Source of the DNA: Mucilaginibacter frigoritolerans
GTDB taxonomy: Bacteria > Bacteroidota > Bacteroidia > Sphingobacteriales > Sphingobacteriaceae
DNA length: 64,000 bases
Direction of reading: 5' to 3'
Assembly (NCBI RefSeq): GCF_007830615.1
Contig: NZ_VLLI01000005.1
Span: forward strand, 1 to 64,000
Part shown: in pieces, positions 24,826-57,859 of the stretch
Numbering within the stretch: position 1 is the first letter of the stretch
Layout: every line of letters starts with the position of its first letter
The notes under the pieces: model-generated
Database searches by the model: none
Seen by the model: only the letters and a program-made list of their open reading frames with translations
Told to the model about the DNA's origin: nothing
Made by a program: the position numbers and the translations under genes

Positions 24826-27429
24826 TTAAAATTCATTAATAGAGCGCTGCAAAACTGAGGCAAAATCTTCAACATTTGGATGCAAAAGCATTGAGAGATG
24901 GTCGCCCGGGACTTCATTGATTTCAACTCCTTTTTTAGCATATTTTTTCCACCCCAGAAACTCGGTATCATCTATATAATGCGTACATATCTTTGCCTTA
25001 AACAGGTATACATTGTCGTTAAATGGTTCAATTGAATAATTGGCCAGGGCGATTCTTAACTTGTTTCTTACTTTTTTTATCTGCCTGTAAAACTCCTTCG
25101 ATTCCTCGTTTTGCTTCGGTTTGACGCGCAGTCTTTCTAACACATTCCGAAATGCACTGCTGGGGTGGGACAATGAATACTTTACCGATGCAATAACAGT
25201 GGGCAAATGCCTTTTTATTTTTCGGGGAAGAAGGTACGACCAGCTTTTGTATTTTGACTTTTCGGCATCAGTATCAAAAATTATTACCCTAACGTTTTTT
25301 CCTCTTTCAACCAGTTGTCTTCGCATCTCCACTGCAACATATCCGCCGAAAGAGTAACCAGCCAGCAAGTATGGACCGGTTGGGTTTTGATCCAAAATTT
25401 CTTTTACATAGCTGGCGGCGATTTCTTCCATAACCTCCAATGGCGCGTCTCCTTCAAGTCCCCTTGCCTGTAATCCATAAACGGGCTGTTCTTTATCCAG
25501 GTTAATGGCGAGGGAACTAAAATACAGCACATTTAAACCTTCACCATGTATAATATAAAGAGGCGGTTTGGAGCCATTTGGTTTTATTGCTACAAGGGCC
25601 TGCCAGTTTGAGGCTGTGTCATTAAGGTGTATAGACAATTCGCCAATCGTAGGATATTTTAATAAAGCAGCAATAGGCAAACGTTTGCCGGTAACCTTTT
25701 TAATACGGGCCATTATCTGCACAGCAACAAGCGAATGGCCGCCTAGTTCGAAAAAGTTGTCGTAGATGCCTATCTGTTCAATCCCCATTAAATCTCTCCA
25801 TGCAGATGCAAGTTGTTTTTCCAATTCAGTTACTGGTGCTATGTACGGAGTATTGTTGTGTTCTCCAGTGATGTTTGGTTTTGGCAATGCATTTCGGTCA
25901 ATTTTTCCATTGGGTGTTAATGGTACAAATGGTATGAAAACAAAATGATCGGGAACCATATAAGCGGGAAGGTTTTTTAACAACATTTTTTTTAGTTCGG
26001 CCTTTCTTAACTCTGTACCAGTATTCTTGGCATCAGCATTTAAAACCATATAAGCTGCCAGACTAGCACCGCCTGGACTATCTTTTCTTACGGTTGCTAT
26101 AGCATCTTTTATGTCTTTTTCCTTCATTAAGGCATGTTCGATCTCTTCAAGCTCTATCCGGTAACCACGCACTTTTACCTGGTTATCCATTCTCCCAAGG
26201 CATTGTATCTCACCATTTTTGGTGAATCGTCCTAAATCACCCGTACGGTACATTTTTGCAAGTGGTTTTTCTGAAAAAGGATCGTTGATGAATCTTTCAG
26301 CCGTCATATAGGGCTTATTGATGTACCCTTTTGTTACACCGTCGCCTCCGATAAATATTTCTCCCGTCTCGCCATGAGAGAGGTTGTTCTGCAATTCATC
26401 CAGGACATAAATGGTTGTATTGTTTATTGGTTTACCGATTGTAATATCATCAGCACTTTTAATCAGCTTTTGTGTTGAATAAACAGTGGTTTCTGTTGGC
26501 CCATATTGGTTCCAAAGTTCATTACAGCGCGATAAAAGTAATTCGGCAAGGTGCCTTGTCAGTGGTTCGCCCCCGCAAATGATTTTTAAAGGCAGAAAGT
26601 AGTCCCAACCTGCCGCAATTATCATTTGCCATGCATAAGGGGTGGCCTGCATAATGGTAATCTTTTCCTTTTTTATAACATCAAGCAACAACCATCCGTC
26701 CTGTGCGGTTTCGGTACTTACCAATACGATTTGTGCTCCGCTGATGAGGGGCAGGTATAACTCAAGACCAGCAATGTCAAAGGAAATGGTAGATATTGCC
26801 AATAGTTTATCTTCTGCATTAATGCCGGGTGTTTTTTGCATGCTGAACAGAAAATTGAGCAGGTTTTGATGAGTGACCATAACTCCTTTTGGGGTTCCTG
26901 ATGAACCTGAGGTATAGAGGATATATGCGAGGCAATTTAGATTAACAGATATTCCAGGCTCTCCGGGATCGTAGGTTTCCAACTTTTCCCAGGCATCTTC
27001 GATTAAAAGTTCGGTGGCATTGCTGAGGAAATATTTTTGGTATTTTTTTGATGTCAAAAGCATCGTTGCACATGAATCCAATAACATGAACTCAACCCGA
27101 TCCTTTGGATATAAAGGATCGAGCGGAAGATAGGCTGCTCCTGTTTTAAGGATAGCTAATAACGAGACAATCATTTCAGGGGAACGATCAACCGCCACGC
27201 CGACGATGTCGCCTTTTTGGATGCCATTATCTATTAATAATTTAGCCAGCTTATTTGAATGTTCGCATAAGGTTTGATACGACCAAATACTGTCATTAAA
27301 TTTTATTGCAGTACGATGGGGGTATTTTTTTACGCACTCATCAATATAATGATGGAGTGCTTTGAATGGAAGATGATCCTTAGCCAAATCAGGAGGATTC
27401 CCATTGTATGTAGATATATTGCGATTCAT
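24826..27429 (-). CDS. Stand-alone NRPS module A-PCP-TE (first paralogue)
   Basis: The 867-residue enzyme starts at the ATG at 27429; a TTG at 27450 would add seven residues. Numbering here includes those seven. The adenylation domain spans residues 30-520, with A3 YTSGSSGTPKG (179-189), A4 SFDIAG (Asp225, alpha-amine binding), A5 QYGPTE (315-320), A7 YRTGDLGR and A10 NGKIDR (Lys516). The carrier domain has FFELGGHSL with Ser573 for phosphopantetheine. The thioesterase has GYSFGG (Ser700), FDTD (Asp726) and GDHLSML (His), a full triad. There is no condensation domain, so by itself it can load, tether and release or transfer one amino acid. It ends the exopolysaccharide operon. Confidence 0.9.
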   Translation of the reverse strand: MNRNISTYNGNPPDLAKDHLPFKALHHYIDECVKKYPHRTAIKFNDSIWSYQTLCEHSNKLAKLLIDNGIQKGDIVGVAVDRSPEMIVSLLAILKTGAAYLPLDPLYPKDRVEFMLLDSCATMLLTSKKYQKYFLSNATELLIEDAWEKLETYDPGEPGISVNLNCLAYILYTSGSSGTPKGVMVTHQNLLNFLFSMQKTPGINAEDKLLAISTISFDIAGLELYLPLISGAQIVLVSTETAQDGWLLLDVIKKEKITIMQATPYAWQMIIAAGWDYFLPLKIICGGEPLTRHLAELLLSRCNELWNQYGPTETTVYSTQKLIKSADDITIGKPINNTTIYVLDELQNNLSHGETGEIFIGGDGVTKGYINKPYMTAERFINDPFSEKPLAKMYRTGDLGRFTKNGEIQCLGRMDNQVKVRGYRIELEEIEHALMKEKDIKDAIATVRKDSPGGASLAAYMVLNADAKNTGTELRKAELKKMLLKNLPAYMVPDHFVFIPFVPLTPNGKIDRNALPKPNITGEHNNTPYIAPVTELEKQLASAWRDLMGIEQIGIYDNFFELGGHSLVAVQIMARIKKVTGKRLPIAALLKYPTIGELSIHLNDTASNWQALVAIKPNGSKPPLYIIHGEGLNVLYFSSLAINLDKEQPVYGLQARGLEGDAPLEVMEEIAASYVKEILDQNPTGPYLLAGYSFGGYVAVEMRRQLVERGKNVRVIIFDTDAEKSKYKSWSYLLPRKIKRHLPTVIASVKYSLSHPSSAFRNVLERLRVKPKQNEESKEFYRQIKKVRNKLRIALANYSIEPFNDNVYLFKAKICTHYIDDTEFLGWKKYAKKGVEINEVPGDHLSMLLHPNVEDFASVLQRSINEF

Positions 27430-27614
27430 GTAATTTGTATTTTTTATCAACCATTAATCAAACAAACTTCAAAACGTAAAAAAAGGTTAATTAATGGATC
27501 CATTATATTTTTCAAAAAAAACCTGCTAGGAATGATACGTTTATAATTTTCTTACCCCAAAATCGGCTACAATTGTGCGAATAAAACAATAATCAGCATT
27601 TCAGGTTATTGGCT

Positions 27615-28826
27615 CTAATTCGGTAATGCTGCTACTTTAACAGTATTCCATTCAATGGTATTATATCGCCCGTACCAGAAGTTAGTGATCATGCGGGGAA
27701 TAATCCAACTCCTTTTACATGGCTCGGTTTCCAGGAAAATCAGCGTAGCCAGCAATTCATCTCCCATAATTTTAAAACTCATGGTGTCAATAATCTCTAG
27801 CGACCTGGTAGACATCATTGTTTTTGCAGCGTCAGATAATTGTATGAAGTCCAGAATTTTATCCTGTAATTCTAGTTGATTGCTTGGGTCAAACACATAG
27901 CCATTTTCACCATCCTTTAAAAGCGTTAATCCCGAATTTATCTTGTCACTAAGTAGTACCGGCAAACCTGCAGCCATGGCTTCATTGACCACTAATCCCC
28001 AACTTTCATAAAAACTTGGCGAGATAAAAGCGTCGGCCGAATATAAATACGCCGGGATTTTGTCGTTATCAATAGCCCCTAAAAAAATTACTTTAGTGAG
28101 GTTCATTGATAGGGCAGAGCTTTTTAGTTCAGGAAATAAAGGCCCATCACCAATTATTATCAGGGTATAGGTGTCATCGTGGCTTTCAATAAATTTCCAC
28201 GCTTCCAGCAAGCCCAGAACGTTTTTCTTCTGAACCATTCTTGAAACGCAAATAATCTTTTTGTTGGTTATCTCCTTATTGTGTGCAAATTTAAAAAGTT
28301 CGTTATCTATACAATCAAAGCCATACAGATACCGCATATTTTCTTTACTGTACACTGGGACATATTCAGAATCGTATTCCATTGAAGGCAGCCAAAGTGC
28401 ATCAACCTGATTTGTAATCAAGTTTTTGATTCCCTGTATTATTAAATTTCTTTTTATCCATGATGGCTTACCGTCGTCAAACATAATGAGCTTCTTTTTG
28501 TTCTTTTTCGCCCATCGAAGGCCCAACGCCCCGGAATAAAAAACAATTGACCCGGCAATAATCACATCGGGATCCAGCTCATCTAGTTTCGAAAATACTT
28601 TATCTCTTATCTGATATTTGGTAAGCTCACCGCAACTGTCTTCCGGGAATAAGCAATCCCACCAAGTCTCGGTTTTATTAAAAGTTTCGAAATCATAAGG
28701 GGATCCTTTACCAAACAGCTCAATTGCATAAAAATCAATCCCCTGTGACTTTAAAAACTTATGCAGAAACATTAGCCTTCCCTTCCAATAAACACGGAGG
28801 TCCGTGTGTATTATTACTACTTTCAT
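27615..28826 (-). CDS. Glycosyltransferase family 4-like protein
   Basis: The 403-residue GT-B enzyme has a C-terminal nucleotide-sugar-binding half: VSRMVQKKNVLGLLEAWK, IIGDGPLFPELK and the SFYESWGLVVNEAMAAGLPV motif (Glu-X7-Glu of GT4). The N-terminal acceptor domain begins MKVVIIHTDLRVYWKGRL. It adds a sugar to the lipid-linked repeat unit on the cytosolic side of the membrane. The donor sugar cannot be told. It sits between the GT2 gene and the A-PCP-TE gene (186 bases before the latter's start) on the same strand. Confidence 0.88.
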   Translation of the reverse strand: MKVVIIHTDLRVYWKGRLMFLHKFLKSQGIDFYAIELFGKGSPYDFETFNKTETWWDCLFPEDSCGELTKYQIRDKVFSKLDELDPDVIIAGSIVFYSGALGLRWAKKNKKKLIMFDDGKPSWIKRNLIIQGIKNLITNQVDALWLPSMEYDSEYVPVYSKENMRYLYGFDCIDNELFKFAHNKEITNKKIICVSRMVQKKNVLGLLEAWKFIESHDDTYTLIIIGDGPLFPELKSSALSMNLTKVIFLGAIDNDKIPAYLYSADAFISPSFYESWGLVVNEAMAAGLPVLLSDKINSGLTLLKDGENGYVFDPSNQLELQDKILDFIQLSDAAKTMMSTRSLEIIDTMSFKIMGDELLATLIFLETEPCKRSWIIPRMITNFWYGRYNTIEWNTVKVAALPN

Positions 28827-28919
28827 ATTGTAATTTGCCTTACTTGTTTTGTTTATATTGTATTACCGGGTATGGAAACCTGAAGCCTTTATTTTAAGGC
28901 AGGTGATTTGTTGAATAAT

Positions 28920-29822
28920 TCAATTTTTCACCTTCTCTTCCTTTTTAAACACGTCGTACACGATTGGAAATAATGTTTTGACCCAAAACTTAATGTGAGT
29001 GGTTGGCACCGACAAAGGAAAATGCTTCTTTACATATAACATATGTTGTTTATAGGCCAAGCCTTTGGGGCTATACAAAAATTCGATCCGCTTTTTTAAT
29101 GGGGTACTTTGGGAGAGCCAGGTTACGCCATGGTCGTCGTCACAATGGCCGTAATAACCAGGCGCTATCCAAACATTTACTCCGTTTTTTATAGCGGTCA
29201 AGGTATAGTCATAGTCGGCAATGCCATGTGTGTAAGAGCCTGATAATATTCCTATCTTATCTACAGTTGATTTATCCACCAACATGATATTAGCATTGCC
29301 AATTTCACAGGCAGTAAGCAGGAATGGATCGGGTGTTACTGTAATTGTATCGCCACTGAATTTATTAATGATTTTTTGGCCACCATAGGTTATGGCGCTT
29401 CCATTGCTATCCTGTAAGGTTCCTAATATGATGTTTCCAGGATCGGGCAGCGAATTACAGGCCGAAAGCAAGCGCCCCAGGGCACCTTCAAATAACACAA
29501 CATCATCGTTAAACAAAAGATAGAAATCATAGTCTTCTTTTTTAACTACATGCTCCCAAAGTGTTCGCATGCCGCCCGCCCAAAACAACGATCCAGAGCC
29601 GTTTAAAACATTTACAGTAGGAAAATGAGATTCAACATAAGAGGCTGTACCATCGGATGAATTATCATCCAATAAATAAGCATCAATTTTGTAATTATCA
29701 GAAACTTTTTGATTTACCAGACTTGTTAAAAAAGCTGTCGTTTTTTTTAAGCGGTTATATGAGCAGCTTAAAGCTGCAATCTTTATTTCCTTCTTTGGTC
29801 CACCAGTCATTTTATCCGTCAT
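28920..29822 (-). CDS. Glycosyltransferase family 2 protein
   Basis: The 300-residue protein is of GT-A fold. It has the N-terminal CSYNRLKKTTAFLTSLVNQ, LLDDNSSDGTASYVESH and the donor/metal site FNDDV near residue 113. The SGSLFWAGGMRTLWEH segment is typical of the rhamnosyltransferase-like GT2 branch. There is one hydrophobic patch near the C-terminus but no clear membrane helix. It probably extends the repeat unit. It begins a minus-strand group with the GT4 and the first NRPS gene, divergent from the acyltransferase gene at 30081. Confidence 0.88.
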   Translation of the reverse strand: MTDKMTGGPKKEIKIAALSCSYNRLKKTTAFLTSLVNQKVSDNYKIDAYLLDDNSSDGTASYVESHFPTVNVLNGSGSLFWAGGMRTLWEHVVKKEDYDFYLLFNDDVVLFEGALGRLLSACNSLPDPGNIILGTLQDSNGSAITYGGQKIINKFSGDTITVTPDPFLLTACEIGNANIMLVDKSTVDKIGILSGSYTHGIADYDYTLTAIKNGVNVWIAPGYYGHCDDDHGVTWLSQSTPLKKRIEFLYSPKGLAYKQHMLYVKKHFPLSVPTTHIKFWVKTLFPIVYDVFKKEEKVKN

Positions 29823-30080
29823 CTCATTTACACAACCATTTGAAGCACAACTTGTTTTAAAAAGAGTGCTAATTATTGCTTTTGTAAACGATGGTGCTAT
29901 TTAACCGTTATTAAGGGATCTGATTGCTTATGTCAATAAAAGATTTACTTGTTTTATCGCTAAAAAATTAAGTTGATAAAATGAACTATTTGATGTTTTC
30001 TTTGTTGTTTAACATACTTCGGTGCCTTATTATGTTAATAAAAGCTTGGAGTGTACAAACAATCAAAAAACACTTATCCC
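29823..30080. promoter_or_regulatory. Divergent intergenic region inside the polysaccharide locus
   Basis: This AT-rich stretch must hold the promoter of the plus-strand acyltransferase and probably a promoter for the leftward GT2-GT4-NRPS group. I cannot define boxes with confidence; no strong inverted repeat is visible. Confidence 0.4.
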
Positions 30081-30737
30081 ATGCTTTCATTTTTCATAAG
30101 ATTAATAAAAAAAAGAACATTTAATTCGCACCTAAGGGAGATTGCAGATTATGTTGATGTTGGTAAATCTCATTTATTGATGGGTTTTAAGCTCAATTTG
30201 AATCGGCCAATAGATAAAAAAAAATATGTGAAGATTGGAGACGATACTATTTTGGAATGTACAATTACTTTCGAATCTCCCAATGGAGAAGTAATTATAG
30301 GGAATAACACATTTATAGGTACAAGTACCATTATTTCCCGTTCGCAAGTAGTAATTGAAGATAATGTTTTTATAGCCTGGGGCTGCTATTTGTATGATCA
30401 TGATTCTCATTCAATTGACTATAAAGAACGAGAGAACGACATTTTGCAACAATTATCAGATTTGCGTGCCGGCAGAAATTTTATTAAAAATAAAAACTGG
30501 GATGTAGTGAATTCCCGCCCAATCAAAATCTGTTCAAACGCATGGATAGGAATGCATTGTATTATATTAAAAGGCGTTACAATAGGTGAGGGGGCAATTG
30601 TGGGGGCAGGCAGTGTTGTAACAAAAAACGTTCCTGCGTGGACAATAGTTGGCGGTAATCCTGCCAGAGTGTTGAAAGAAATACCCGAGCATTTGCGAAA
30701 AAAATCAGATCATGATAAATTACTATATACCTTATAA
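30081..30737 (+). CDS. Left-handed beta-helix (hexapeptide) acyltransferase
   Basis: The 218-residue product starts at the ATG at 30081; a GTG at 30051 would add ten residues. Hexapeptide turns run from about residue 65 (IGDDTILECTITF, EVIIGNNTFIGTSTII, VVIEDNVFIAWGCYLYDHD) and again at 165-205 (WIGMHCIILKGVTIGEGAIVGAGSVVTKNVPAWTIVGGNPARV). The His in DHDSHS is the likely catalytic base. Such enzymes transfer acetyl or other acyl groups to a sugar hydroxyl or amine, here probably decorating the polysaccharide. It is the only plus-strand gene in the locus, and its end overlaps the end of the facing GT4 gene by 28 bases. Confidence 0.88.
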   Translation: MLSFFIRLIKKRTFNSHLREIADYVDVGKSHLLMGFKLNLNRPIDKKKYVKIGDDTILECTITFESPNGEVIIGNNTFIGTSTIISRSQVVIEDNVFIAWGCYLYDHDSHSIDYKERENDILQQLSDLRAGRNFIKNKNWDVVNSRPIKICSNAWIGMHCIILKGVTIGEGAIVGAGSVVTKNVPAWTIVGGNPARVLKEIPEHLRKKSDHDKLLYTL

Positions 30738-31846
30738 GTTTGTTCGGCTGTTATTTTCCAGCTAAATCTCTCCAAAACCTTAGGCTGGTGTTTCAATAAT
30801 TCTTTTTTTAATTCACCATTTGACAAGATCATCTTTAATTGATGGGTGAAGTTGTTAAAACTAGCTGGGTCAAAATATAATGCGCCGTTCCCGCCAACTT
30901 CAGGCAAGCTTGATGAACTACTGGCTAAAATAGGGCAACCGGCTTTCATTGCCTCGAGTAGGGGGAATCCGAACCCTTCGTAAACTGATGGCAGTATAAG
31001 GCAGGCGGCATTTTGATAAATAGAAAATAGTTCCTGATCAAGTGCCTGTACAGATTTAACAGCATTACGCAAACCAAATTTATTAAGCCCATCCTGTTCC
31101 AACTGCGTAAACGGAGATCCAACACACAAGAGTTTTAATTCATCATTGCCATCTAATATAGGAACTAAATTCTCAATCATTTTCCAGAAATTCTTATACG
31201 GTGTTTTCCTGTCCCCAATGTATAAAAGATATCGTTGTGGTTGCTCCGTTTTGCTATTTAAAAGGTTGAATTTCTCGCCTTCAACCATATAGTCGGGTGG
31301 GCCGTGGTAAACCATTGAAATTTTGTCTTCGCTAATTCCATAGATATCTTTCAGGTCTCGTTTTGTTGATTCGGAAATACAGATCAGATGATCGGCTCTT
31401 TTAAAGGTGTTTTTACGTTGCTTAAGCCAGTTTTTTATGTCGGGAAAATCTGATGGATATAATTCAGCGATCAGGTCGTGTACTGTAGCGACTATTGGTT
31501 TTTTTAAATTCGCCCCTTTTAAATATTCAGAATCATCAGCAGTAACGTGTATCAAATCTCGGTCACTGTTTCTAAGCCGATGAAATGCGATCAGCTCATT
31601 AATTTTCCCCATATATCTAAGAGCTGTTGAGGAGCCTGCAAGTTTATCAATTTTTTTAAGACCCAGCGGCCTCAAAAAAATGGCGCCATTCCCTTTGCCC
31701 AAATAATAGTTCCGGTAAATAAAAGCCCAGTTGTCAACTTTGCATAGTTTGTTTTCAATTAACGCTTTTTTTAAATTATAAAAATACCGCGACACGCCGC
31801 CTACCCTTTGTATTAAAAAAATCTGATTGTCAAAGTATACTTTCAT
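30710..31846 (-). CDS. Glycosyltransferase family 4 protein (mannosyltransferase-like)
   Basis: The 378-residue GT-B protein has the N-terminal FLIQRVGGVSRYFYNL, a middle HVTADDSEYLKG and VATVHDLIAEL, and the C-terminal LLYIGDRKTPYKNF, ILPSVYEGFGFPLLEAMKAGCP and SSLPEVGGNGALYFDP. The pattern is that of GT4 enzymes of the WbaZ/mannosyltransferase type, fitting a GDP-mannose-derived donor given gmd nearby. It lies 30 bases after the polymerase gene in the leftward operon. Its last nine codons overlap the convergent acyltransferase gene. Confidence 0.88.
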   Translation of the reverse strand: MKVYFDNQIFLIQRVGGVSRYFYNLKKALIENKLCKVDNWAFIYRNYYLGKGNGAIFLRPLGLKKIDKLAGSSTALRYMGKINELIAFHRLRNSDRDLIHVTADDSEYLKGANLKKPIVATVHDLIAELYPSDFPDIKNWLKQRKNTFKRADHLICISESTKRDLKDIYGISEDKISMVYHGPPDYMVEGEKFNLLNSKTEQPQRYLLYIGDRKTPYKNFWKMIENLVPILDGNDELKLLCVGSPFTQLEQDGLNKFGLRNAVKSVQALDQELFSIYQNAACLILPSVYEGFGFPLLEAMKAGCPILASSSSSLPEVGGNGALYFDPASFNNFTHQLKMILSNGELKKELLKHQPKVLERFSWKITAEQTYKVYSNLS

Positions 31847-31876
31847 GGCCGGTTGTTAATTTTTAATAAAGTTGTT

Positions 31877-33154
31877 TTATATTATTTGCGAATTGATTAT
31901 TAAGGATTTGGTGATTTGTTTTTGCTTGGCCAAATTATCCTCATCTACAGGCAATTGTTCGATAAAAGACGCCGGCAAAGAATAATGATATAAAAACAAA
32001 AAGCACAGCATTATAGAAGTTATAAAAATGCATTCGCCAAAGCCAAGAATGAGAATTATCAAAATGGCGTAAATACTAACTTCGATATTTCCGTTTAATT
32101 TTTGGAATAAAGAATAACTTTTAAACAGCAGAAAACCGAGCCCTATCATCCCAAATTGTCCGAAAAAACTAAATATTCCATTTGAAAGTCCTATGTTTTT
32201 TAATAATGGTATGGATTGCTCGTAAATATTGGAAACCCCCCAAATAAGGTTAAACCTAAGAGCATTTATAAGGAATAACATGCTTCCAAAACGGTTTAGC
32301 GGCATAATCTGCCCCATATGGATGTACGTTTGATTTAGAGTTTGTATATTTTTAAGATCTTGCATATCCCTGTTATACGTAACACCAATCTTATCGAATA
32401 AGAATGGAAGCGATGTAGCAAAAGCTATAACCACAGGTACAATTAAAAAGAGCAATTTTGTAAATTTCACCCCTCTTGCGCGAAAAAATAATAGAAGAAC
32501 TAACACGAATGCGATATAGGCAGTTGTGGATAAAGTGGTAATTAATGCTATAGACATCCATATGGCTTTTTTATCGAACGTGAAATTGTTAGTGAAGAAA
32601 TTTAACAGCAGGCCGATAACTAAGAAGAAACCGAAAGCACCAGGTTCCCATGCAAAGCCGGAATTTCTGATAGTATGAACTTTTACATAAGTAAAGAATA
32701 TCATGTTTACGTACCCGTTAAAATGAGCATACGGGAGATTGAGCATTTTGCCAAATGTGTACACTGTATCGCCCGAAATTAGTTGTAAGCAATAAAGCGG
32801 TAAGGAGAGAATTGCCAGGTGGCAGATCACTGTTGCAAGATATTTGATAGATTTCTCTCTTAGAATAACACAAAAAAGAAAACTTGGCAGCACATATTTA
32901 AATAGAAAAATGACATCACTAACCCAGTACTGCAATGGCAATTGGATAAGAAAAAGTGCGCGCAGTGTACAAAAGGTTAGGTAGATTAAAGCAAATTTTA
33001 AAAACAATTGGATGTCACTTTTTAAAAGACGTCCTTTTTCAAGAGCTATCCACAAAAAGAGGCCGTCAATCAGAAACCAGCATATATTCATACCATCGAT
33101 GAAAGTTGCCTTACTGGAAAGAAGTATGAAAATCAAAGTGACAAAATAATACAT
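31877..33154 (-). CDS. wzy: O-antigen/exopolysaccharide polymerase (Wzy-like)
   Basis: The 425-residue protein is almost wholly membrane-embedded, with about ten to twelve hydrophobic helices and a larger periplasmic loop (residues about 255-300, RDMQDLKNIQTLNQTYIHMGQ). The GFAWEPGAFGFFLVIGL segment is characteristic of Wzy/Wzy-ligase-type polymerases. It would join lipid-linked repeat units in the periplasm. The stop lies next to the flippase stop/start boundary (two bases between its start and the wzx stop), indicating tight cotranscription. The assignment rests on topology and context because Wzy sequences are poorly conserved. Confidence 0.8.
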   Translation of the reverse strand: MYYFVTLIFILLSSKATFIDGMNICWFLIDGLFLWIALEKGRLLKSDIQLFLKFALIYLTFCTLRALFLIQLPLQYWVSDVIFLFKYVLPSFLFCVILREKSIKYLATVICHLAILSLPLYCLQLISGDTVYTFGKMLNLPYAHFNGYVNMIFFTYVKVHTIRNSGFAWEPGAFGFFLVIGLLLNFFTNNFTFDKKAIWMSIALITTLSTTAYIAFVLVLLLFFRARGVKFTKLLFLIVPVVIAFATSLPFLFDKIGVTYNRDMQDLKNIQTLNQTYIHMGQIMPLNRFGSMLFLINALRFNLIWGVSNIYEQSIPLLKNIGLSNGIFSFFGQFGMIGLGFLLFKSYSLFQKLNGNIEVSIYAILIILILGFGECIFITSIMLCFLFLYHYSLPASFIEQLPVDEDNLAKQKQITKSLIINSQII

Positions 33155-33156
33155 AG

Positions 33157-34557
33157 CTAATATTTACTGTCTTCAACCAAACTCGGTTCAGATAATATAA
33201 TTTCCTGTGCTTTTTTAGGGTTTTTTAAAACTGCTTTTATTTCCCTTCGCCATACTATCAACTGGATTGTAACCCACAAAGTGGTTGCGTAGGTTAACGA
33301 ATTTAATCCCCAATGAAAATACTTTATAAAAAACAATACCACAGGTACATGTAGAACACCCGTGATAATTGAAACGATAGCCTGCAGTTTTATTCTGCCT
33401 GTTCCATTTAAAACCATAGAATACATCGCAGTAAATAATACCACACTGAAATATATAGCCATATTGAGGCTTAAAATAAAAGGTACGTGGATTTTTGGGC
33501 CAACCCAGATCTTAAATACTGGAACAACTAATAACAATTGTGCTAATATCCCTGCGAACAAAAACCAGGATGTTCTCACCAATTTCCGGATACTATTTCT
33601 GATCCAATCAAAATCATTTAATGCGAAGGCATTGGTGAAAGCGCCCCAGTAAGTAGCCAGTATGATATTGAGTACTAAAGTGGTGGTTGAAAAATACTTA
33701 TATAATAAATTATAAAGCGTGACGTCAGCACCACCGAATTCGCGGGTTATAATTATCTCTGAAGTTGAAAAAAGAAATACACCTGCTATCTGTACTATAA
33801 AAAAAGCCAGGCTCAATCCAAATAGAGACTTACTTTTTGCTAAATTAATATGTTTAAAAGAAGGCCTTATTATTTTATATTGGGTTTTAAATAATATAAG
33901 CGTATATAATAGAAGGACAAAAACCGGCAAAATAGTTTGTGCAAATGCCAGGCTCACCATTGATCCTTTTAAAAATTTGCTGAACAAAACAATAGGGACA
34001 AGCGGAATAAAATTGCATATCAATTGAATAAGATTGGCCTTATATATTTTCTGATCGCCCTGGAGAATGGAAGAGATTGGTTTTAGAAAAAATTGCAGCA
34101 GAAGACCCACAAAAACTGTTGCAACAGTATACAGCAATTCCTTTTCAACCAGCCGGGTATTAAAAATCGAATTCCAGTTAGCAAACTGGAGGAAGATAAC
34201 AAATAGCAGCAAAATGGGGACAACGATCATCAGTAGTATGGCATAAGTGGATGATACGGCAATTTTTGCATCTTCATATTTCCCAACAGCAAAGTACTCG
34301 GCTACCTTGTTCCGGAGTCCGTTTGCCAAACCTATGTCCAGTATGCTTATCCAACTTACGGTTGAAGAAATGGCCAACCAGATGCCGTATTTGTTGGTAT
34401 CGAGCAGCTTAAGGGAGAAAGAGATAGTGAGAAAAGAAACTATAATGCTAACTGCCCTTAATAGAAAAGAGACAACAATATTGAAATTAACCTTGGCCGT
34501 TCGGCCACTGCTTTGATCAAATAACGATGTTATATTATTTTTTAGAAGTTTTATCAC
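33157..34557 (-). CDS. wzx: Polysaccharide repeat-unit flippase (Wzx-like)
   Basis: The 466-residue MOP-superfamily protein has about 12 to 14 hydrophobic helices, beginning FNIVVSFLLRAVSIIVSFLTISFSL with a cytosolic KLLDTNKYGIWLA loop and WISILDIGLANGLRNKVAE. These are typical of Wzx/RfbX flippases, which move undecaprenyl-linked repeat units across the inner membrane. It sits between the Wzc-like kinase (85 bases) and the polymerase. Confidence 0.88.
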   Translation of the reverse strand: MIKLLKNNITSLFDQSSGRTAKVNFNIVVSFLLRAVSIIVSFLTISFSLKLLDTNKYGIWLAISSTVSWISILDIGLANGLRNKVAEYFAVGKYEDAKIAVSSTYAILLMIVVPILLLFVIFLQFANWNSIFNTRLVEKELLYTVATVFVGLLLQFFLKPISSILQGDQKIYKANLIQLICNFIPLVPIVLFSKFLKGSMVSLAFAQTILPVFVLLLYTLILFKTQYKIIRPSFKHINLAKSKSLFGLSLAFFIVQIAGVFLFSTSEIIITREFGGADVTLYNLLYKYFSTTTLVLNIILATYWGAFTNAFALNDFDWIRNSIRKLVRTSWFLFAGILAQLLLVVPVFKIWVGPKIHVPFILSLNMAIYFSVVLFTAMYSMVLNGTGRIKLQAIVSIITGVLHVPVVLFFIKYFHWGLNSLTYATTLWVTIQLIVWRREIKAVLKNPKKAQEIILSEPSLVEDSKY

Positions 34558-34642
34558 GCGTTCAGTATTTATGTTTTTCTCTTACTTTTTTAGCTGTTAT
34601 AAAATCGCGATGTTTTAATTTATTTAACGTTGGAAGCTCCAA

Positions 34643-36985
34643 TTACCTGGTCGCCTCCCGGGAGTAATGTTCATACTTATATCCCTCGCTGTCGCGACCA
34701 TTTTTTAAGCCATTATATATGATGTTCATTTTTTGAAAGCATTCATTAGAATTAAGCTTTCTGATAAAAGGCAACAGCGATTTTGAGGTATAGTTATGTC
34801 GGACTACATAAAGTGTCACGTCACAAAATTTTGCAAGGATATGAGCGTCATTGATAGCATGAACAGGGGGACTATCAAACAAAATGTAGTCATATTGTAC
34901 ACGCCATGCACTGATCAGCCGCAGGAATGATTCTTGTTCCAGCAGTTCAGAAAAATTGTCTACAAATGGGCCGGAACCAATAATGCTCAAATTTGGATAT
35001 GAAGGAACCTCTTGCACAATATCCTGTTGAAACGCCTGGTTTGTTAGATAACTGGTTAGGCCAGTTAAAGGTGCGAGTCCGAATGTTTTCGAAATAGTAG
35101 GTTTATAAATATCCGTTTCTATAAGCAGCGTTTTCTTTCCGATACTTGCCAGTGAAACAGCCAGGTTGCTGCTTACCATACTTTTACCCTCATTTGCCAC
35201 ACTTGAGGTTACCAGAACAAAGTATCCTCCGACGATAGATTCGTTTAGCAGATTAAGCTGTGTGCGTAAATGCCTGAATTGCTCTATAAGCGCGAAGCTC
35301 TCCTGGTTAGCGCGGTTTTCAAATACAATTGCAGATGGTAGTTTTATGTAGCTGAATTCAGCAATTACCGGTATGCCAGTTGCTTGCTCAATTTCTTTGC
35401 GACTACCTACCCTGTATTTCACTATATCGCGGCTGTAGATAAACCCTGCCGGAAAAATTAAACCGATTAGGAAGGCAATACCAAAAGGCATTATTTTTTT
35501 TGCGGCTTTTAGTGGCAATGTATGGGCAGCATCCACCAAACGGACCTCGGATGCTGACGATGCATAGGTTAGCGCAATAGTTTCGCGCTGCTGTAGCAAA
35601 TAATTATACAAAGATGATTTAGTGGATTGCTGGCGACCCATCCCTGAGAGTTGCTGCTCCTGGACAGGAACATTTTTGATAGACGACTGAATATTTGATT
35701 TAAATGATGCCAAAGACCCCTGCATCGTTGTTAAAGAAGACTTCATGCTCTTAATATCCTCTTTGATTTCTTGTTTCAGGGAAGCGATCTGACTGTTTAT
35801 GGGGTCAAAAGCGGGATTTTTTTCGGGCAGTGTAGCCAGCATTTTGTCTCTTTCCAGTTCAAGGTCCGATAATTTTTGGATTAGTGCTGATAGATGCTGG
35901 TCAGAGATGCCGATGGCAGAAGGAATACTTGAATCATTGTTTCCCGGCTTATCCAAGTAGGCTTCCAGGTTTTCAATCACGTGTAATTGAACGTTGATTT
36001 CATTTAGTTTTTCATTATTGGACTGGATGCCCTGCAGATACATTTGTGATTGAGCGTTAACATCCGTCAAGCCATTATGACTGCGATAGCCTTCGATGCT
36101 GTTTTCTGTATAATTTAGCTGACCCGAAATAGAATCAAGTCGCTTATCAATAAAATCTAAGGTGCTTTTAGTTATTTTACTTTTTTCAGTAATGTCAGAT
36201 CGCTTGTAGAAATAAATGAGATAATTTATAAAATCTTCCCCTTTCCTTACATTGGGGTCGCTTAAAGAGATATTAATAACTGTGGCCGGCTTTTCCTGGG
36301 CTTCTACAGTAAGCGCATTCTGGTAAGCTAAAGTGGTAGTTTCCGGATCGGTTATGCCGATTTCAATTTCGTCACCAATATAGTGTACAATGCTGGCATT
36401 TTTACTTATTGTCCAAGAACCGAGAGCGTTTTTTATAGTGTCATTGAAGCGATGTTTGGCTGAATTGCCTTTTTTGTCTAAAAGTAAGTAGGAGCTGGTA
36501 TCCAGTATAAGTAAATCAATTTTTGGAGACGGTGTTAGCATGCCCGCATCAAGTAAATTAATCTTAACCGGACTTATGCCATAAAGGTCGCGATTCTTAA
36601 TAATGCCGCCTTTTAACTCATAATCAGCCCAAAGCTGAAAATAATTCACTACGTTTCTTATCAATTGGTTGGATTTTAGTACTTCTATTTCATTTTCAAC
36701 AACCTTGGGCGCATTAACCTGCTCAAGTGACTGAAATTCAACTAATGAGGATTTTTGTTCAGGCGGTTGACTATTATCACTCTGTATCATCATGGTTGCC
36801 ATTATTTCATAAGCCGGTGTTTCACGTATGGTGTAAATAAAGGCTATAGATAAAGCAATGAGGATAGATACAACAAATAAAGGCCACCACAAGCGATATT
36901 TAATTAAAAACGCTCTTATATTAATAGCCTCGTCATTGGTGTTATTTTGACGGGTATTAATGTTCCCGGGTTGTTTATTATTCAT
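34643..36985 (-). CDS. wzc: Wzc-like chain-length regulator and BY-type tyrosine kinase
   Basis: The 780-residue product starts at the ATG at 36985; TTG 37003 is possible. There is a Wzz domain with a membrane helix near residue 40 and a long periplasmic coiled-coil segment (residues 290-470). A second helix (IMPFGIAFLIGLIFPAGFIYS) leads into a C-terminal ATPase/kinase domain with Walker A TSSVANEGKS, Walker A' LLIETDIYKPT and Walker B ILFDSPPV. The tail carries three tyrosines (EGYKYEHYSREATR) for autophosphorylation. It controls polymer length and export together with the Wza-like protein just upstream (28 bases). Confidence 0.92.
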   Translation of the reverse strand: MNNKQPGNINTRQNNTNDEAINIRAFLIKYRLWWPLFVVSILIALSIAFIYTIRETPAYEIMATMMIQSDNSQPPEQKSSLVEFQSLEQVNAPKVVENEIEVLKSNQLIRNVVNYFQLWADYELKGGIIKNRDLYGISPVKINLLDAGMLTPSPKIDLLILDTSSYLLLDKKGNSAKHRFNDTIKNALGSWTISKNASIVHYIGDEIEIGITDPETTTLAYQNALTVEAQEKPATVINISLSDPNVRKGEDFINYLIYFYKRSDITEKSKITKSTLDFIDKRLDSISGQLNYTENSIEGYRSHNGLTDVNAQSQMYLQGIQSNNEKLNEINVQLHVIENLEAYLDKPGNNDSSIPSAIGISDQHLSALIQKLSDLELERDKMLATLPEKNPAFDPINSQIASLKQEIKEDIKSMKSSLTTMQGSLASFKSNIQSSIKNVPVQEQQLSGMGRQQSTKSSLYNYLLQQRETIALTYASSASEVRLVDAAHTLPLKAAKKIMPFGIAFLIGLIFPAGFIYSRDIVKYRVGSRKEIEQATGIPVIAEFSYIKLPSAIVFENRANQESFALIEQFRHLRTQLNLLNESIVGGYFVLVTSSVANEGKSMVSSNLAVSLASIGKKTLLIETDIYKPTISKTFGLAPLTGLTSYLTNQAFQQDIVQEVPSYPNLSIIGSGPFVDNFSELLEQESFLRLISAWRVQYDYILFDSPPVHAINDAHILAKFCDVTLYVVRHNYTSKSLLPFIRKLNSNECFQKMNIIYNGLKNGRDSEGYKYEHYSREATR

Positions 36986-37013
36986 AATAGGAGGGATAAA
37001 CAAGGATAATAAA

Positions 37014-37820
37014 CTAGTGATGGTAAACTAAAAATGCAGAAACTAATATGGCAACTACCGAAATTCCGGAAATGACTAATGTGTTGGTCTTGTAACTACG
37101 CGCAACGTTATCATATTTTGTCTTATCAGCATCTACATAGATAACATCATTGTTGTGTAGATAATAATAGGGCGAATCAAAGACATACTTTTTAGTTAAA
37201 TCAAGCGTGATGAATTGCCGTTTCCCGTTCTCCTCACGGATCAGTAAAACATTTGTCCTTTTTGCAGTGATACTCAGGTCGCCTGCCAAGCTTAATGCTT
37301 CATTAATATTTATGTGTTCGTTTTGAATGGTATAAATGTCCGGCTTCATAACATCGCCTAAAACTGATATTTTGAAATTGAGAATACGAACGTTTACAAT
37401 AGGCCCTTTTAGATATTCCTGAAGATTTGCAGTTAGCTGTTTTGCAACCTCGTCTGTTGTTAGTCCATATACTTTCATAGTTCCAACCAAGGGTAGTTGC
37501 ATCTGTCCGTTAGCGTCTACTTTAAAGCCATAGATTGGATTTGTTGTACTATTATCAAGATTGTTTCCGCTTACGCGAGCAATGCTGGTGTTAAATACAG
37601 AGGCTGCTTCAGGGTTTAAACTGTTAACATTGATTCCCAGGATGTCTCCCGGCTGAATTTTAAAGGGCTCATAGTTTTTAATTTCTTCTTGAATATCGCC
37701 TGAACGATTAGCGTCTTGGTAATAAGAAACTTGTTGGTAACCTTTGTCTTTATAAAGGCCACAAGCAGACAATAAAAGCGCAAAAATTGCGACTAAAGGG
37801 AGCGGAAAAAAATTTTTCAT
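37014..37820 (-). CDS. wza: Polysaccharide export outer-membrane lipoprotein (Wza-like)
   Basis: The 268-residue protein has a lipoprotein signal (ALLLSAC then GLYKDKGY), a Poly_export domain (YEPFKIQPGDILGINVNSLNPEA), an SLBB domain (ISVLGDVMKPDIYTIQNEHININEALSLAGDL) and a C-terminal hydrophobic helix (LVISGISVVAILVSAFLVY), as seen in Bacteroidota Wza homologues. It forms the export channel with Wzc. It opens the Wza-Wzc-Wzx-Wzy-GT4 run, and its upstream 287 bases contain the promoter. Confidence 0.92.
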   Translation of the reverse strand: MKNFFPLPLVAIFALLLSACGLYKDKGYQQVSYYQDANRSGDIQEEIKNYEPFKIQPGDILGINVNSLNPEAASVFNTSIARVSGNNLDNSTTNPIYGFKVDANGQMQLPLVGTMKVYGLTTDEVAKQLTANLQEYLKGPIVNVRILNFKISVLGDVMKPDIYTIQNEHININEALSLAGDLSITAKRTNVLLIREENGKRQFITLDLTKKYVFDSPYYYLHNNDVIYVDADKTKYDNVARSYKTNTLVISGISVVAILVSAFLVYHH

Positions 37821-38107: not shown

Positions 38108-38551
38108 TCAACTGCGGGGGATTTGTTTAAACATAAAAACGTACTGCTCCGTGCTGATATAACCCTCTTTATTATAAAATTTATAGGAGGGCATGTATTT
38201 GTTCGTCATCAGTACAATCGAATCAATTTGATATTTCGCTGCATAAAGATCACAGTAATCCAACATTTTTTTACCATAACCCATCCTTTGCTTTTCTTGC
38301 GAAACAAAAAATTCATCAATCATCAGTTGTTGGTTAGTCCACCACGTTTTTACGTGCGCAAACACTGCTCCTGTTAGTTTATCATCATCATATAATGCAA
38401 ATCCAATAAATTGCTGACAACCCAAATATTCCACCAGATATGCCTGTGCTTTGCTATAAGTCCAGGCATAGTTCCATGGCGGACAGTTATAAGCCTTTAT
38501 ATATGCGGGGACACATTCGTCCACATTTTCGAGTGTTATCGGAACAATCAT
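38108..38551 (-). CDS. GNAT-family N-acetyltransferase
   Basis: The 147-residue protein has the GNAT acetyl-CoA site, FFVSQEKQRMGYGKKMLDY (Gln/Arg-X-X-Gly-X-Gly/Ala) near residues 87-105, and the C-terminal YKFYNKEGYI motif. The N-terminal CPPWNYAWTYSKAQAYLVEYL fits small GNATs acting on free amines. The acceptor is unknown. It lies 71 bases after the second A-PCP-TE gene and 287 bases ahead of wza. It could acetylate an amino sugar or the amino-acid product of the NRPS module, or be unrelated. Confidence 0.85.
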   Translation of the reverse strand: MIVPITLENVDECVPAYIKAYNCPPWNYAWTYSKAQAYLVEYLGCQQFIGFALYDDDKLTGAVFAHVKTWWTNQQLMIDEFFVSQEKQRMGYGKKMLDYCDLYAAKYQIDSIVLMTNKYMPSYKFYNKEGYISTEQYVFMFKQIPRS

Positions 38552-38622
38552 CGTAAATTGATTAGTAAATTTAGTTTAATAAGCAGGTGCCGCTTGGTTA
38601 ATTTTATATCTTCCGGCTGCGC

Positions 38623-41334
38623 TTAAAAGCTAGCCCCCAGAGTTTTGTTCGTTTTTATTTTATGTTGATCATGAGTCTCAGCATTGTCCAATACTGCCTC
38701 CAATATTGATGCAAATTGTTCAACGTTAGGTGGCAATAACATGGATAAATGGTCTCCCGGGACTTCATATAGTTGGACTCCGTCTTTTGCATATCTTTTC
38801 CATCCCAAAAATTCAAGGTCATCCACATAATGCACACATATTTTCGCTTTGAATAAATAAACCCTATTATTAAAGGGTTCCATCGAATAATTTCTGAAAG
38901 CGCTCAAATGTTTTCCCTTAATTCTTTTAATTAATTGATAGAATCCTTTAGACTCTTTTTTTGATAAATAATTAGATAAAAAATTAGGTGGGTGATTTAT
39001 AAATTGTTTTTTAAAGGTCGCTAATGGTCGCTGAAATGATGATTTTAGAAATGACATGAAGATAGGAATGTTTCTTTTTACCTTTCTGGGTAACAAGTAA
39101 TACCAGTCTTTATATTCGGTCTTTTCAGCATCCGTATCAAACATAATTAACATTTGTACCTCTTTACCCATAGCTACTATTTGCTTTTCTATTTCCACTG
39201 CCACATAACCACCAAAAGAATAGCCTGCTATCAAATACGGGCCGCCTGGATTATGCTGAACTATTTCGCTCAGATAGGCCGCGGCAATTTGTGTTATAGT
39301 TCCTAATGGTTCATCAGTTCCGTTAAGTCCACTGGCCTGTAAACCAAAGATGGGCCTTTCTTCGTCTATATAGTCCGCAAGGCTGCTGAAGTTAAGCACA
39401 TGCAACCCTTCTCCGTGGATAATGTATAGCGGAGTTTTGCTGCCCGATGGTTTAACGGCCACCAATGATCTGTAAACGATCTCTTTTTTTTCGCTTTCAA
39501 TAAAAGCTGCAAATGACCTTATAACCGGATATTTAAAGAGAACGGATAATGGTAGCTTTTTCCCAATTTTCCTTTCAAGTTTCGATAGAATCTGCACCGC
39601 CATTAACGAATGACCGCCAAGTGCAAAAAAGTTGTCATCAATGCCAACTTCTTTGATTCCTATACATTCCTGCCAGATAGCAGTAAGCATTTTTTCTGTT
39701 TCTGTCTCAGGCGCCGAGCGGGTTTCTGTAGGCAGGGCAACTTCTTGTGGGGTAGGGAGTGCGTTTCTATCGATTTTTCCGTTAGATGTGAGCGGTAGTT
39801 TGTGCAGGTCTATCCACGTGGAGGGCATCATATATTCAGGGAGTTTTGTTTTTAAAAAAGCCACCATATCTTCTTTCTTAAATTCCCCATTTGGAACGAT
39901 ATAACCAATGAGCCGTTTGGTACCGCTTGCAGTATCCTTTGCAAGCACTACAGCATTGCAAACGGCAGAACTACTGTTTAATACGCTTTCAATTTCTCCT
40001 AACTCAACGCGAAATCCATTGATCTTTACCTGGTTATCCTGCCTGCCCAAAAACTCCATATTGTAATCATTCATCATTCGCCCCAGGTCACCGGTACGAT
40101 ACATCATTCCTCCCGCTGTTTGATTAAAAGGATCCGGAATGAAAGAAGCCTGCGTTTTCTCCTCGTCATCTGCGTAGCCGCGGGCAACGCCAACGCCGCC
40201 TATGTAAAGATCGCCGATTTCGCCCATCGAAACGGGGTTTAACAACTTGTTTAATATATAAAAGAAATTATTTTGGATGGGTTTGCCGTAAGGAATACTC
40301 TTCCATGTTTTTTCGGTTTGATCAATGATATAATAATTTGACCACACTGTAGCTTCTGTAGCACCGCCTAAACTTACCACCTGTGCTTTTGGAAAGAATT
40401 TTTGCAGGCGCGAAGGCAGCTTGACAGGGATCCAGTCGCCACTCATAAAAATTGTTTTTAATCCTGTATAACGGTATCCTTTGCGTGCCTGTTCCAGATC
40501 TTTTACCAGATAGTCGAGTGTTGTGGGCACGGAGTCCCAAAAGGTAATCTCGTATTTGATTAACATGTCCTGTAGTGCTTGCACATCCTGAATTTCCTTA
40601 TTTTCAGCAATGACAAGCGAACCGCCGGCAGCTAATATTCCGAAAATATCGTACACCGACAAATCGAAACACATAGAAGTGATAAAAAGCAGGCGATCAT
40701 CTGATCCAATATTGAAGCGTTTATTAACCCATGAGATTAAGTTGATGGCCGAATGGTGTTCGATCATTACGCCTTTTGGCTGGCCCGTTGAGCCCGATGT
40801 ATAAATGGTATAAGCCAGCTGCGAACTGCTAATGGCCAAGCCTGGATTGGCATCGTTAAGTTCCGAAATATTACTAATGTCTACGTTAAGAAAATTTTCC
40901 GCCCCAATCGTATTTTTCAAAGGATAAGCATTCGTTGAGACTACCATTTTTAAGGCAGACTTATAGAATATATGTTCCTGTCTGAGTACAGGATATTCCG
41001 GATCGATGGGTACATATGCCCCTCCGGCTTTTAATATGCCAAGCATGCCAATAATCATATCAAAATCACGCTGAACTAACAAGCCGATATTATCCCCGGG
41101 AACAACGCCCTTTTTAATAAGGAAATGAGCTAAACGATTTGACGCTCTATTTAGCTCATCATAAGTCATTGTGCATTCACCTTTTCGTAGGGCAATTGAA
41201 CCAGGTGATCGGAGTGCCTGTTCTTCAAAAGGGGCAAACAGCGTTTTCTCTCTGGCGTATGGAACGGTTGTATTATTGAACTCGTCCATCAGTTGGTCGT
41301 CAGCAGCATCGGTATGGATAATAGTGGGATACAT
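38623..41334 (-). CDS. Stand-alone NRPS module A-PCP-TE (second paralogue)
   Basis: The start is uncertain: the ATG at 41334 gives 903 residues; a TTG at 41391 gives 922 and keeps SLLNAEVIRVKKQ. Numbering here uses 922. The adenylation domain has A3 TIYTSGSTGQPKG, A4 MCFDLSVYD (Asp243), a variant A5 LGGATEA in place of YGPTE, A7 YRTGDLGR and A10 NGKIDR (Lys539). The carrier is NFFALGGHSL (Ser595). The thioesterase has GYSFGG (Ser725), FDTD and GDHLSML. The hand-aligned specificity residues D-L-Y-D-F-S-L-V-W resemble cysteine-type codes. There is no condensation domain. The carrier and thioesterase regions are closely similar to the paralogue at 24826. It is encoded between gmd and the GNAT gene. 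Confidence 0.9.
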   Translation of the reverse strand: MYPTIIHTDAADDQLMDEFNNTTVPYAREKTLFAPFEEQALRSPGSIALRKGECTMTYDELNRASNRLAHFLIKKGVVPGDNIGLLVQRDFDMIIGMLGILKAGGAYVPIDPEYPVLRQEHIFYKSALKMVVSTNAYPLKNTIGAENFLNVDISNISELNDANPGLAISSSQLAYTIYTSGSTGQPKGVMIEHHSAINLISWVNKRFNIGSDDRLLFITSMCFDLSVYDIFGILAAGGSLVIAENKEIQDVQALQDMLIKYEITFWDSVPTTLDYLVKDLEQARKGYRYTGLKTIFMSGDWIPVKLPSRLQKFFPKAQVVSLGGATEATVWSNYYIIDQTEKTWKSIPYGKPIQNNFFYILNKLLNPVSMGEIGDLYIGGVGVARGYADDEEKTQASFIPDPFNQTAGGMMYRTGDLGRMMNDYNMEFLGRQDNQVKINGFRVELGEIESVLNSSSAVCNAVVLAKDTASGTKRLIGYIVPNGEFKKEDMVAFLKTKLPEYMMPSTWIDLHKLPLTSNGKIDRNALPTPQEVALPTETRSAPETETEKMLTAIWQECIGIKEVGIDDNFFALGGHSLMAVQILSKLERKIGKKLPLSVLFKYPVIRSFAAFIESEKKEIVYRSLVAVKPSGSKTPLYIIHGEGLHVLNFSSLADYIDEERPIFGLQASGLNGTDEPLGTITQIAAAYLSEIVQHNPGGPYLIAGYSFGGYVAVEIEKQIVAMGKEVQMLIMFDTDAEKTEYKDWYYLLPRKVKRNIPIFMSFLKSSFQRPLATFKKQFINHPPNFLSNYLSKKESKGFYQLIKRIKGKHLSAFRNYSMEPFNNRVYLFKAKICVHYVDDLEFLGWKRYAKDGVQLYEVPGDHLSMLLPPNVEQFASILEAVLDNAETHDQHKIKTNKTLGASF

Positions 41335-41425
41335 TGGACTTGATAATGATTGTTTTTTCACACGGATTACTTCAGCGTTTAATAAACTCAAAAATTCACC
41401 GTTAGCATAGTTTTATGATTTGCTT

Positions 41426-57836: not shown

Positions 57837-57859
57837 TACAAAGACAGGGGAAGGGCAAT

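What the first reader, a model, noticed from the sequence alone, without database searches (positions are those of the whole stretch)
24826..41391. Two paralogous A-PCP-TE modules without condensation domains inside a Wzx/Wzy exopolysaccharide locus
Seen: both proteins have an adenylation domain, one carrier domain and one type I thioesterase with complete Ser-Asp-His triads, no C domain, and highly similar carrier-TE regions. They flank the core polymer genes (GTs, acyltransferase, Wzx, Wzy, Wzc, Wza). Known: in fungi and a few bacteria A-T-TE enzymes dimerise keto acids without C domains; amino acids occur as amide-linked substituents in some bacterial polysaccharides. Inference: the pair could load amino acids that the TE transfers to sugars of the repeat unit, or make a small product released with the capsule. 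The retained A4 Asp in both argues for amino-acid rather than keto-acid substrates.
Basis: partly seen in the sequence, partly recalled or inferred. Interest (0 to 1): 0.82.

Follow-up and report, generated by a model that had tools for sequence, protein, structure and literature searches.

The report
Swappable amino-acid loaders in slime operon

Summary
Two A-PCP-TE proteins without a C domain (A1, 24826-27450; A2, 38623-41391; minus strand) bracket Wza, Wzc, Wzx, a Wzy-like protein and glycosyltransferases. New: (1) A1 is a mosaic: its A domain groups with glycine-type A domains of a second polysaccharide locus, its TE with A2's. (2) A2's closest partner is a small GNAT just downstream (38108-38551): 33 of 45 GNAT loci have an A2-type enzyme within 500 bp, whereas A1 is missing from G237's matching operon. 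(3) Many A2 relatives keep only the C-terminal half of a C domain, without the HHxxxDG motif (0 of 56). (4) 24 of 38 stand-alone A-PCP-TE genes in 31 family genomes lie within 12 kb of a Wzx-type flippase (about 1.3 expected), though many are inherited copies of one locus. Against plain polymer decoration: in Pedobacter and Chitinophaga the A2+GNAT pair stands without recognisable polysaccharide genes (11 of 11 loci). Best reading: amino-acid tailoring of the polysaccharide, A1 with glycine, A2 with an N-acetylated Cys-like or diamino acid; substrates and the TE as sugar transferase are inferred. Main rival: a small acetylated amino-acid product. New variant of a known kind.

The parts
24826..27450 (-). 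A1: A-PCP-TE protein, glycine-type A domain (code DILQIGQVYK), A2-type TE; PCP Ser573, triad S700/D726/H851
27615..28826 (-). GT4a glycosyltransferase, next to A1; a homologue is also the nearest EPS gene to A1 in M. flavidus and L3T2-6
28920..29822 (-). GT2 glycosyltransferase
30051..30737 (+). hexapeptide-repeat acyltransferase, opposite strand
30710..31846 (-). GT4b glycosyltransferase
31877..33154 (-). Wzy-like membrane protein (no family match; named by position)
33157..34557 (-). Wzx-type flippase (PF01943)
34643..37003 (-). Wzc-type chain-length determinant / tyrosine autokinase
37014..37820 (-). Wza-type export protein (PF02563)
38108..38551 (-). GNAT acetyltransferase (predicted), partner of A2
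38623..41391 (-). A2: A-PCP-TE protein, A-domain code DLYDFSLVWK; PCP Ser595, triad S725/D752/H881
41426..42541 (-). GDP-mannose 4,6-dehydratase, 34 bp upstream of A2
42596..43891 (-). initiating undecaprenyl-phosphate sugar transferase (PF02397)
43967..44740 (-). WecG/TagA-type glycosyltransferase

Best explanation
Two A-PCP-TE enzymes without condensation domains flank the polymer genes of a Wzx/Wzy-type exopolysaccharide operon, and they are predicted to load different amino acids that their related thioesterase domains would likely transfer to sugars of the growing polymer. Steps: (i) a phosphopantetheinyl transferase acting in trans (one lies in the genome's second polysaccharide locus) is expected to activate the carriers; (ii) A1 is predicted to load glycine, A2 a Cys-like or short diamino acid; (iii) the GNAT beside A2 would acetylate the amine of the loaded amino acid or of the product, a job that a condensation domain may have had in A2's ancestors; (iv) each TE would take the acyl group onto its Ser and pass it to a hydroxyl or amine of the lipid-linked repeat unit before Wzx flips it. 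Shown: domain make-up, gene order, mosaic origin of A1, GNAT coupling, half C domains in relatives, association with polysaccharide loci. Inferred: substrates, acetylation and its target, sugar as acceptor.
For: Locus: of 38 stand-alone A-PCP-TE genes in 31 genomes, 24 lie within 12 kb of PF01943 against about 1.3 expected. Same pair, same flanks in M. flavidus and L3T2-6 although Wzx and some GTs are replaced there. Mosaic: A cores A1-A2 35%, A1 to the C13-locus A-PCP-TE 63%; TEs A1-A2 60%, A1 to C13 46%; trees of 127 proteins put A1-type A domains with the C13 group (FastTree support 0.996) and A1-type TEs with A2's (0.96). So the TE follows the locus and the A domain the predicted substrate, as expected if the TE reads the acceptor. 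Substrates: A1 DILQIGQVYK; C13 enzyme DILQLGMIWK, a printed glycine code (PMC12283262, passages). GNAT: 33 of 45 loci within 500 bp of an A2-type enzyme; in 251 family genomes the 6 with the GNAT also have an A2-type gene. Half C domain: of 159 family proteins, HHxxxDG is in 3 of 3 with a full C domain, 0 of 56 with half, 0 of 100 with none; in 4 of 5 half-C proteins tested Pfam matches only the C-terminal part of Condensation, and in the fifth (L098) only a weak piece at 210-273. Precedent: the TE of Pks13 releases its product on polyols, preferably trehalose (PMC9210659, passages), and Pks13 TEs are among the structural matches of A2's TE, though that fold is shared widely.
Against: A2+GNAT has no polysaccharide gene by BLAST in the fetched flanks of all 11 Pedobacter and Chitinophaga loci, and no shared neighbour that points to sugars; L073, L077 and L080 have it with a phosphopantetheinyl transferase instead. 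14 of 38 stand-alone A-PCP-TE genes show no nearby PF01943 hit (the hit list was cut, and one of the 14, G072, has a Wzx by BLAST). At least nine neighbourhoods are one inherited locus, so the 24 are not independent. No DegT-type amino-sugar aminotransferase lies in the operon. A2's code has Asp at 278 where the printed Cys codes seen have Asn. Nothing here shows that this TE accepts a sugar. Two A2-type genomes, G014 and G219, have no such GNAT.
Confidence: 0.48

Rival explanations
1. A2 and the GNAT are a self-sufficient two-enzyme pathway to a small molecule (an N-acetylated amino acid, or a dimer or ring released by the TE), and sit in slime operons only for shared regulation or because the product is kept in the matrix.
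For: A2+GNAT is a tight two-gene unit (31 same-strand pairs, spacing -7 to 268 bp) that stands without recognisable polysaccharide genes in 11 of 11 Pedobacter and Chitinophaga loci and has a phosphopantetheinyl transferase beside it in L073, L077, L080.
Against: Does not explain A1 and the C13-type glycine enzymes in polysaccharide loci without that GNAT, the TE following the locus, or the order A2-GNAT-Wzx-Wzy-GT2-GT4a kept at 36-53% identity for the polymer genes in L097.
Confidence: 0.27
2. The TEs pass the amino acid to a general non-EPS acceptor such as a membrane lipid or LPS core sugar; the EPS operon is one of several homes for the genes.
For: Cassettes without polysaccharide genes keep the same A-domain motifs, so the acceptor may be something most of these bacteria make. 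Some other A-PCP-TE genes sit beside a single glycosyltransferase-like gene (G237 C2, G121, G183; likeness recalled).
Against: No lipid or LPS-core gene stood out as a shared neighbour in the loci read, but most neighbours there were not annotated.
Confidence: 0.15
3. They are decayed or idle modules of a former peptide assembly line, the TE acting only as a hydrolase.
For: Relatives show full, half and no C domain; the C13 locus of the same genome has a full C-A-PCP-TE and a PKS-NRPS.
Against: TE triad invariant in 28 aligned TEs; DLY-type code kept in 92 of the 111 proteins whose code could be read, and the GNAT kept beside it: not what idle genes show.
Confidence: 0.1

Closest known systems
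C-A-PCP-TE termination modules (AB3403, PDB 4zxh; EntF; SrfA-C)
   Same: A, PCP and TE and their order; 4zxh is the best Foldseek match of A2's TE and matches A1 over residues 45-866
   Different: no C domain here; AB3403 itself is called uncharacterized in PMC6668435 (passages)
DltABCD D-alanylation (recalled)
   Same: adenylation plus carrier used to decorate a cell-surface polymer; A1 and A2 match DltA models well below cut-off
   Different: separate A and carrier proteins and a membrane transferase DltB instead of a fused TE (recalled); no such transferase family among the operon's Pfam matches
Pks13 thioesterase domain
   Same: carrier-fused TE; release on polyols, preferably trehalose (PMC9210659, passages); fold match
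   Different: acts on mycolic precursors; sugar acceptance by A1/A2 TEs is untested
Bacterial A-T-TE keto-acid dimerases such as RalA (recalled)
   Same: domain order without C
   Different: Asp235 is kept here, so amino acids are expected
Alanine-bearing Acinetobacter capsules
   Same: amino acid as capsule substituent; alt gene for alanine transfer (PMC9676051, passages)
   Different: no A-PCP-TE named in the passages seen
Exosortase A-associated acyl-CoA ligase family TIGR03098
   Same: AMP-forming ligase of an EPS-linked system (link recalled); A1 and A2 match below cut-off
   Different: score far below the family cut-off (236 and 220 against 592 bits)

Membership tests
NRPS termination module (C-A-PCP-TE) | A domain with carrier and TE | tested here: met
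   Pfam, both proteins
NRPS termination module (C-A-PCP-TE) | condensation domain | tested here: not met
   no PF00668 in A1 or A2; no HHxxxDG in either class without a full C domain
keto-acid dimerising A-T-TE | loss of Asp235 in the A domain (recalled) | tested here: not met
   D at 235 in both
Wzx/Wzy-dependent polysaccharide locus | Wzx, Wza, Wzc and initiating transferase | tested here: met
Wzx/Wzy-dependent polysaccharide locus | Wzy polymerase | tested here: inconclusive
   no family match for 31877-33154
glycine-activating A domain (A1) | a printed glycine code such as DILQLGMIWK | tested here: inconclusive
   A1 DILQIGQVYK shares 6 of 10 positions (D, I, L, Q, G, K); the C13 paralogue matches in full
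cysteine-activating A domain (A2) | Asn at 278 (DLYN), as in the printed codes | tested here: not met
   DLYD in A2 and in 91 of 92 DLY-type proteins read
GNAT acetyltransferase | GNAT domain and fold | tested here: met
   Pfam; model pLDDT 93.8 matches DpA and AAC enzymes
sugar-transferring TE (Pks13-like) | acyl transfer to a sugar | not testable with these tools
   only the fold was compared
DltABCD | DltB membrane transferase | tested here: not met
   no MBOAT among the Pfam results for the 14 operon genes scanned; the rest of the genome was not searched for it

The most novel reading that the evidence does not exclude
Bacteroidota run an NRPS-based, plug-in system for amino-acid tailoring of exopolysaccharides: the TE is matched to the acceptor polymer of its locus, the A domain is exchanged to change the amino acid (glycine, Cys/diamino, Pro-like types), and a dedicated GNAT took over N-acylation from a condensation domain that was lost half by half.
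Probability: 0.3. Interest if true: 0.82.

Novelty: new variant of a known kind. Interest (0 to 1): 0.62.

Why it matters
If true, carrier-bound amino-acid chemistry from antibiotic assembly lines is used to build chemically varied slimes, with a fused transferase rather than the Dlt machinery. It would give a genomic way to predict amino-acid substituents of polysaccharides, give a role to many 'NRPS-like' genes of Sphingobacteriaceae, and offer a TE that could be used to aminoacylate sugars.

Tried and rejected
Keto-acid dimerase: rejected, Asp235 kept. Obligate A1+A2 pair: rejected on G237. Plain cysteine enzyme: doubtful, Asp for Asn at 278 in all but two A2-type sequences where the position was read (P0009; L082). 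Amino-sugar acceptor made in the operon: no DegT-type aminotransferase there; hits elsewhere in the genome. Paper searches for a precedent of such enzymes in polysaccharide loci showed none in what I saw, which was listings and abstract starts only: 20 of 22, 3 of 3, 2 of 2, 15 of 52, 15 of 198, 0 of 0 and 15 of 3,212 papers; one search's terms were too loose to be a test. This is no proof that none is in print. GNAT against the PDB by sequence: no hit. GNAT in 296 phylum genomes: own genome only (E <= 1e-15, one sequence as query).

Limits: the 38 genes were taken by hand as open frames of 860-930 aa; shorter pieces (G221, 824 aa; G101, 577 aa and fragments) and longer frames were left out. 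The PF01943 list was cut; the expectation is a simple area estimate and ignores shared descent; G186's contig was not checked. A-domain codes rest on a recalled GrsA segment, checked only for self-consistency; codes were read in 111 of 120 listed proteins. GNAT loci were found with the GNAT as bait, so 33 of 45 is conditional on the GNAT. EPS context was judged by BLAST to this genome's own genes: 19 of 45 loci had a Wza, Wzc, Wzx, Wzy, OMP or initiating-transferase match (counted), a lower bound. One search is taken to be the same 251-genome draw as (same size, same handles where listed).

Full report
WHAT IS THERE. Both are A-PCP-TE by Pfam with no Condensation match; they are 42% identical over 871 aligned columns. 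The window is the first 64 kb of contig C5 of a 5.66-Mb genome; homologues with names are mostly from Mucilaginibacter, so that genus is likely. The minus-strand run is WecG-type GT, initiating transferase, GDP-mannose dehydratase, A2, GNAT, Wza, Wzc, Wzx, Wzy-like, GT4b, GT2, GT4a, A1. Gaps are 2 to 287 bp except 887 bp between GT4b and GT2, where a hexapeptide acyltransferase lies on the other strand.

A1 IS A MOSAIC. Split into A core, carrier and TE, A1 and A2 are 35, 46 and 60% identical. A1's A core is 63% identical to that of an A-PCP-TE in a second polysaccharide locus of the same genome (C13), whose TE is only 46% like A1's. Trees of 127 proteins agree: in the A-domain tree the A1 type joins the C13 group (support 0.996); in the TE tree the A1 type, three proteins with a DVQ code and the A2 type form a group apart from C13 (0.96). 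The two TEs of the C13 locus are in turn 62% alike. TE likeness follows the locus; A-domain likeness follows the predicted substrate.

SUBSTRATES. The ten pocket residues are DILQIGQVYK (A1), DLYDFSLVWK (A2), DILQLGMIWK (C13 A-PCP-TE). DILQLGMIWK is printed as a glycine code and DLYNLSLIWK as a cysteine code in PMC12283262 (passages); that main text holds no DLYD. A code could be read in 111 of the 120 proteins listed: 91 start DLYD (74 of them DLYDFSLVWK, 16 DLYDFSLIWK), one DLYN. Asp278 may favour a short amine side chain; that is inference. Three relatives have DVQF codes that resemble, from recall, proline codes.

THE MISSED PARTNER. The GNAT at 38108-38551 has 81 homologues in the protein search and 45 loci in titled genome records. 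Of the 45, 33 have an A2-type enzyme within 500 bp, 5 have one farther off in the fetched stretch, 7 have none there; of those 7, one is cut by a contig end (L088), one (L070) has an A2-type gene farther along the same contig, about 30 kb off, and three are titled Chloroflexi or Anaerolineales. In 251 family genomes the GNAT occurs in 6, and those 6 have an A2-type gene (5 adjacent, one of them, G221, split over two frames; in G213 about 30 kb away); two further A2-type genomes, G014 and G219, lack it. The GNAT model (pLDDT 93.8) is closest in fold to the polyamine acetyltransferase DpA and to aminoglycoside acetyltransferases, so a small amine is a fair guess at its target.

HALF CONDENSATION DOMAINS. 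The 159 family proteins compared fall into three N-terminal length classes: 100 without C, 56 with about half of a C domain, 3 with a full one. HHxxxDG is found in 3 of 3, 0 of 56 and 0 of 100 of the full, half and none classes. Of five half-C proteins tested by Pfam, four match Condensation only in its C-terminal part (P0049 206-455, P0035 204-455, L083 and L097 best stretches from 365 and 387 to 455 of 456) and one (L098) only weakly at 210-273, below the Pfam cut-off; two full-length ones match over the whole domain. All 39 half-C proteins with a readable code are DLY type. Both short classes go with the GNAT: 13 of 13 without C and 11 of 16 with half C have it within 300 bp, among GNAT-baited loci where both genes were read.

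LINK TO POLYSACCHARIDE LOCI. TE matches were found in 69 of 251 family genomes. Of 38 stand-alone A-PCP-TE genes, 24 lie within 12 kb of a PF01943 hit, about 1.3 expected; without the window's two, 22 of 36. Nine of the 19 neighbourhoods read are one conserved locus with C13-like order (as far as fetched: initiating transferase, outer-membrane protein, Wzc, Wzy, acyltransferase, Wzx, GT, A-PCP-TE). The A1+A2 pair with the window's flanks is found again in M. flavidus RT5R15 and Mucilaginibacter sp. L3T2-6, even though Wzx is replaced and a UDP-galactopyranose-mutase-like gene (by eye) is added there. G237 keeps A2, GNAT and the polymer genes without A1; in two drafts (L065, L066) A1 was not found, but L066's contig ends inside GT4a. 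GDP-mannose dehydratase directly precedes A2 in the window, G237 and L064-L067. A draft Bacteroidetes genome (L097) keeps half-C-A-PCP-TE, GNAT, Wzx, Wzy, GT2, GT4a in order at 36-53% identity for the polymer genes. G219's half-C enzyme sits in a polysaccharide locus without the GNAT.

AGAINST. In all 11 Pedobacter and Chitinophaga loci (L082, L084, L092, L094-L096, L098, L100, L101, L106, L107) the A2+GNAT pair has no polysaccharide gene by BLAST to this genome's genes within the fetched flanks, and its neighbours differ. So A2+GNAT is a movable two-gene unit, and polysaccharide is a common but not its only setting: 19 of the 45 GNAT loci show such genes by that test. This is the main support for the small-molecule rival.

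HOW IT LIKELY WORKS. A1 would load glycine; A2 a Cys-like or diamino acid that the GNAT would acetylate; each TE would pass the acyl group to a sugar of the lipid-linked repeat. A TE that releases onto polyols is known from Pks13 (PMC9210659 and PMC9900942, passages), and Pks13 TEs appear among the fold matches of A2's TE (pLDDT 82; best match AB3403), but so do many other TEs. The acceptor, the bond and the order of acetylation are not shown.

VERDICT. A real, conserved arrangement of ordinary domains in an unusual setting.

Noticed in passing
G000:C13:126850-151876 (L004, L011, L012): Second polysaccharide locus of the same genome with a 2198-aa A-T-KS-AT-T-aminotransferase protein, a full C-A-PCP-TE, a phosphopantetheinyl transferase and a glycine-type A-PCP-TE around Wzc, Wzy, Wzx and GTs; much of its polymer part recurs in relatives.
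   Followed up: partly
window 45288-47237, 47768-48799, 49071-50120: Three right-handed beta-helix proteins beside the operon; several relatives also have them beside the same genes. They may act on the polymer.
   Followed up: no
L046, L051, L056: Other A-PCP-TE genes sit next to a 281-288 aa protein that looks, from recall, like a Core-2/I-branching glycosyltransferase.
   Followed up: no
P0038, P0043, P0048: A2-type TEs joined to an A domain with a different, Pro-like code: a third exchanged A domain.
   Followed up: partly
L073, L096/L135: A2-type genes split over two frames, likely broken or sequencing errors.
   Followed up: no
P0124, P0127 and others: Several GNAT homologues are named aminoglycoside 6'-N-acetyltransferase I by their source; the link to A2-type genes suggests another role.
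   Followed up: partly
window 57468-58744: Two ORFs that look by eye like an IS3-type transposase pair.
   Followed up: no
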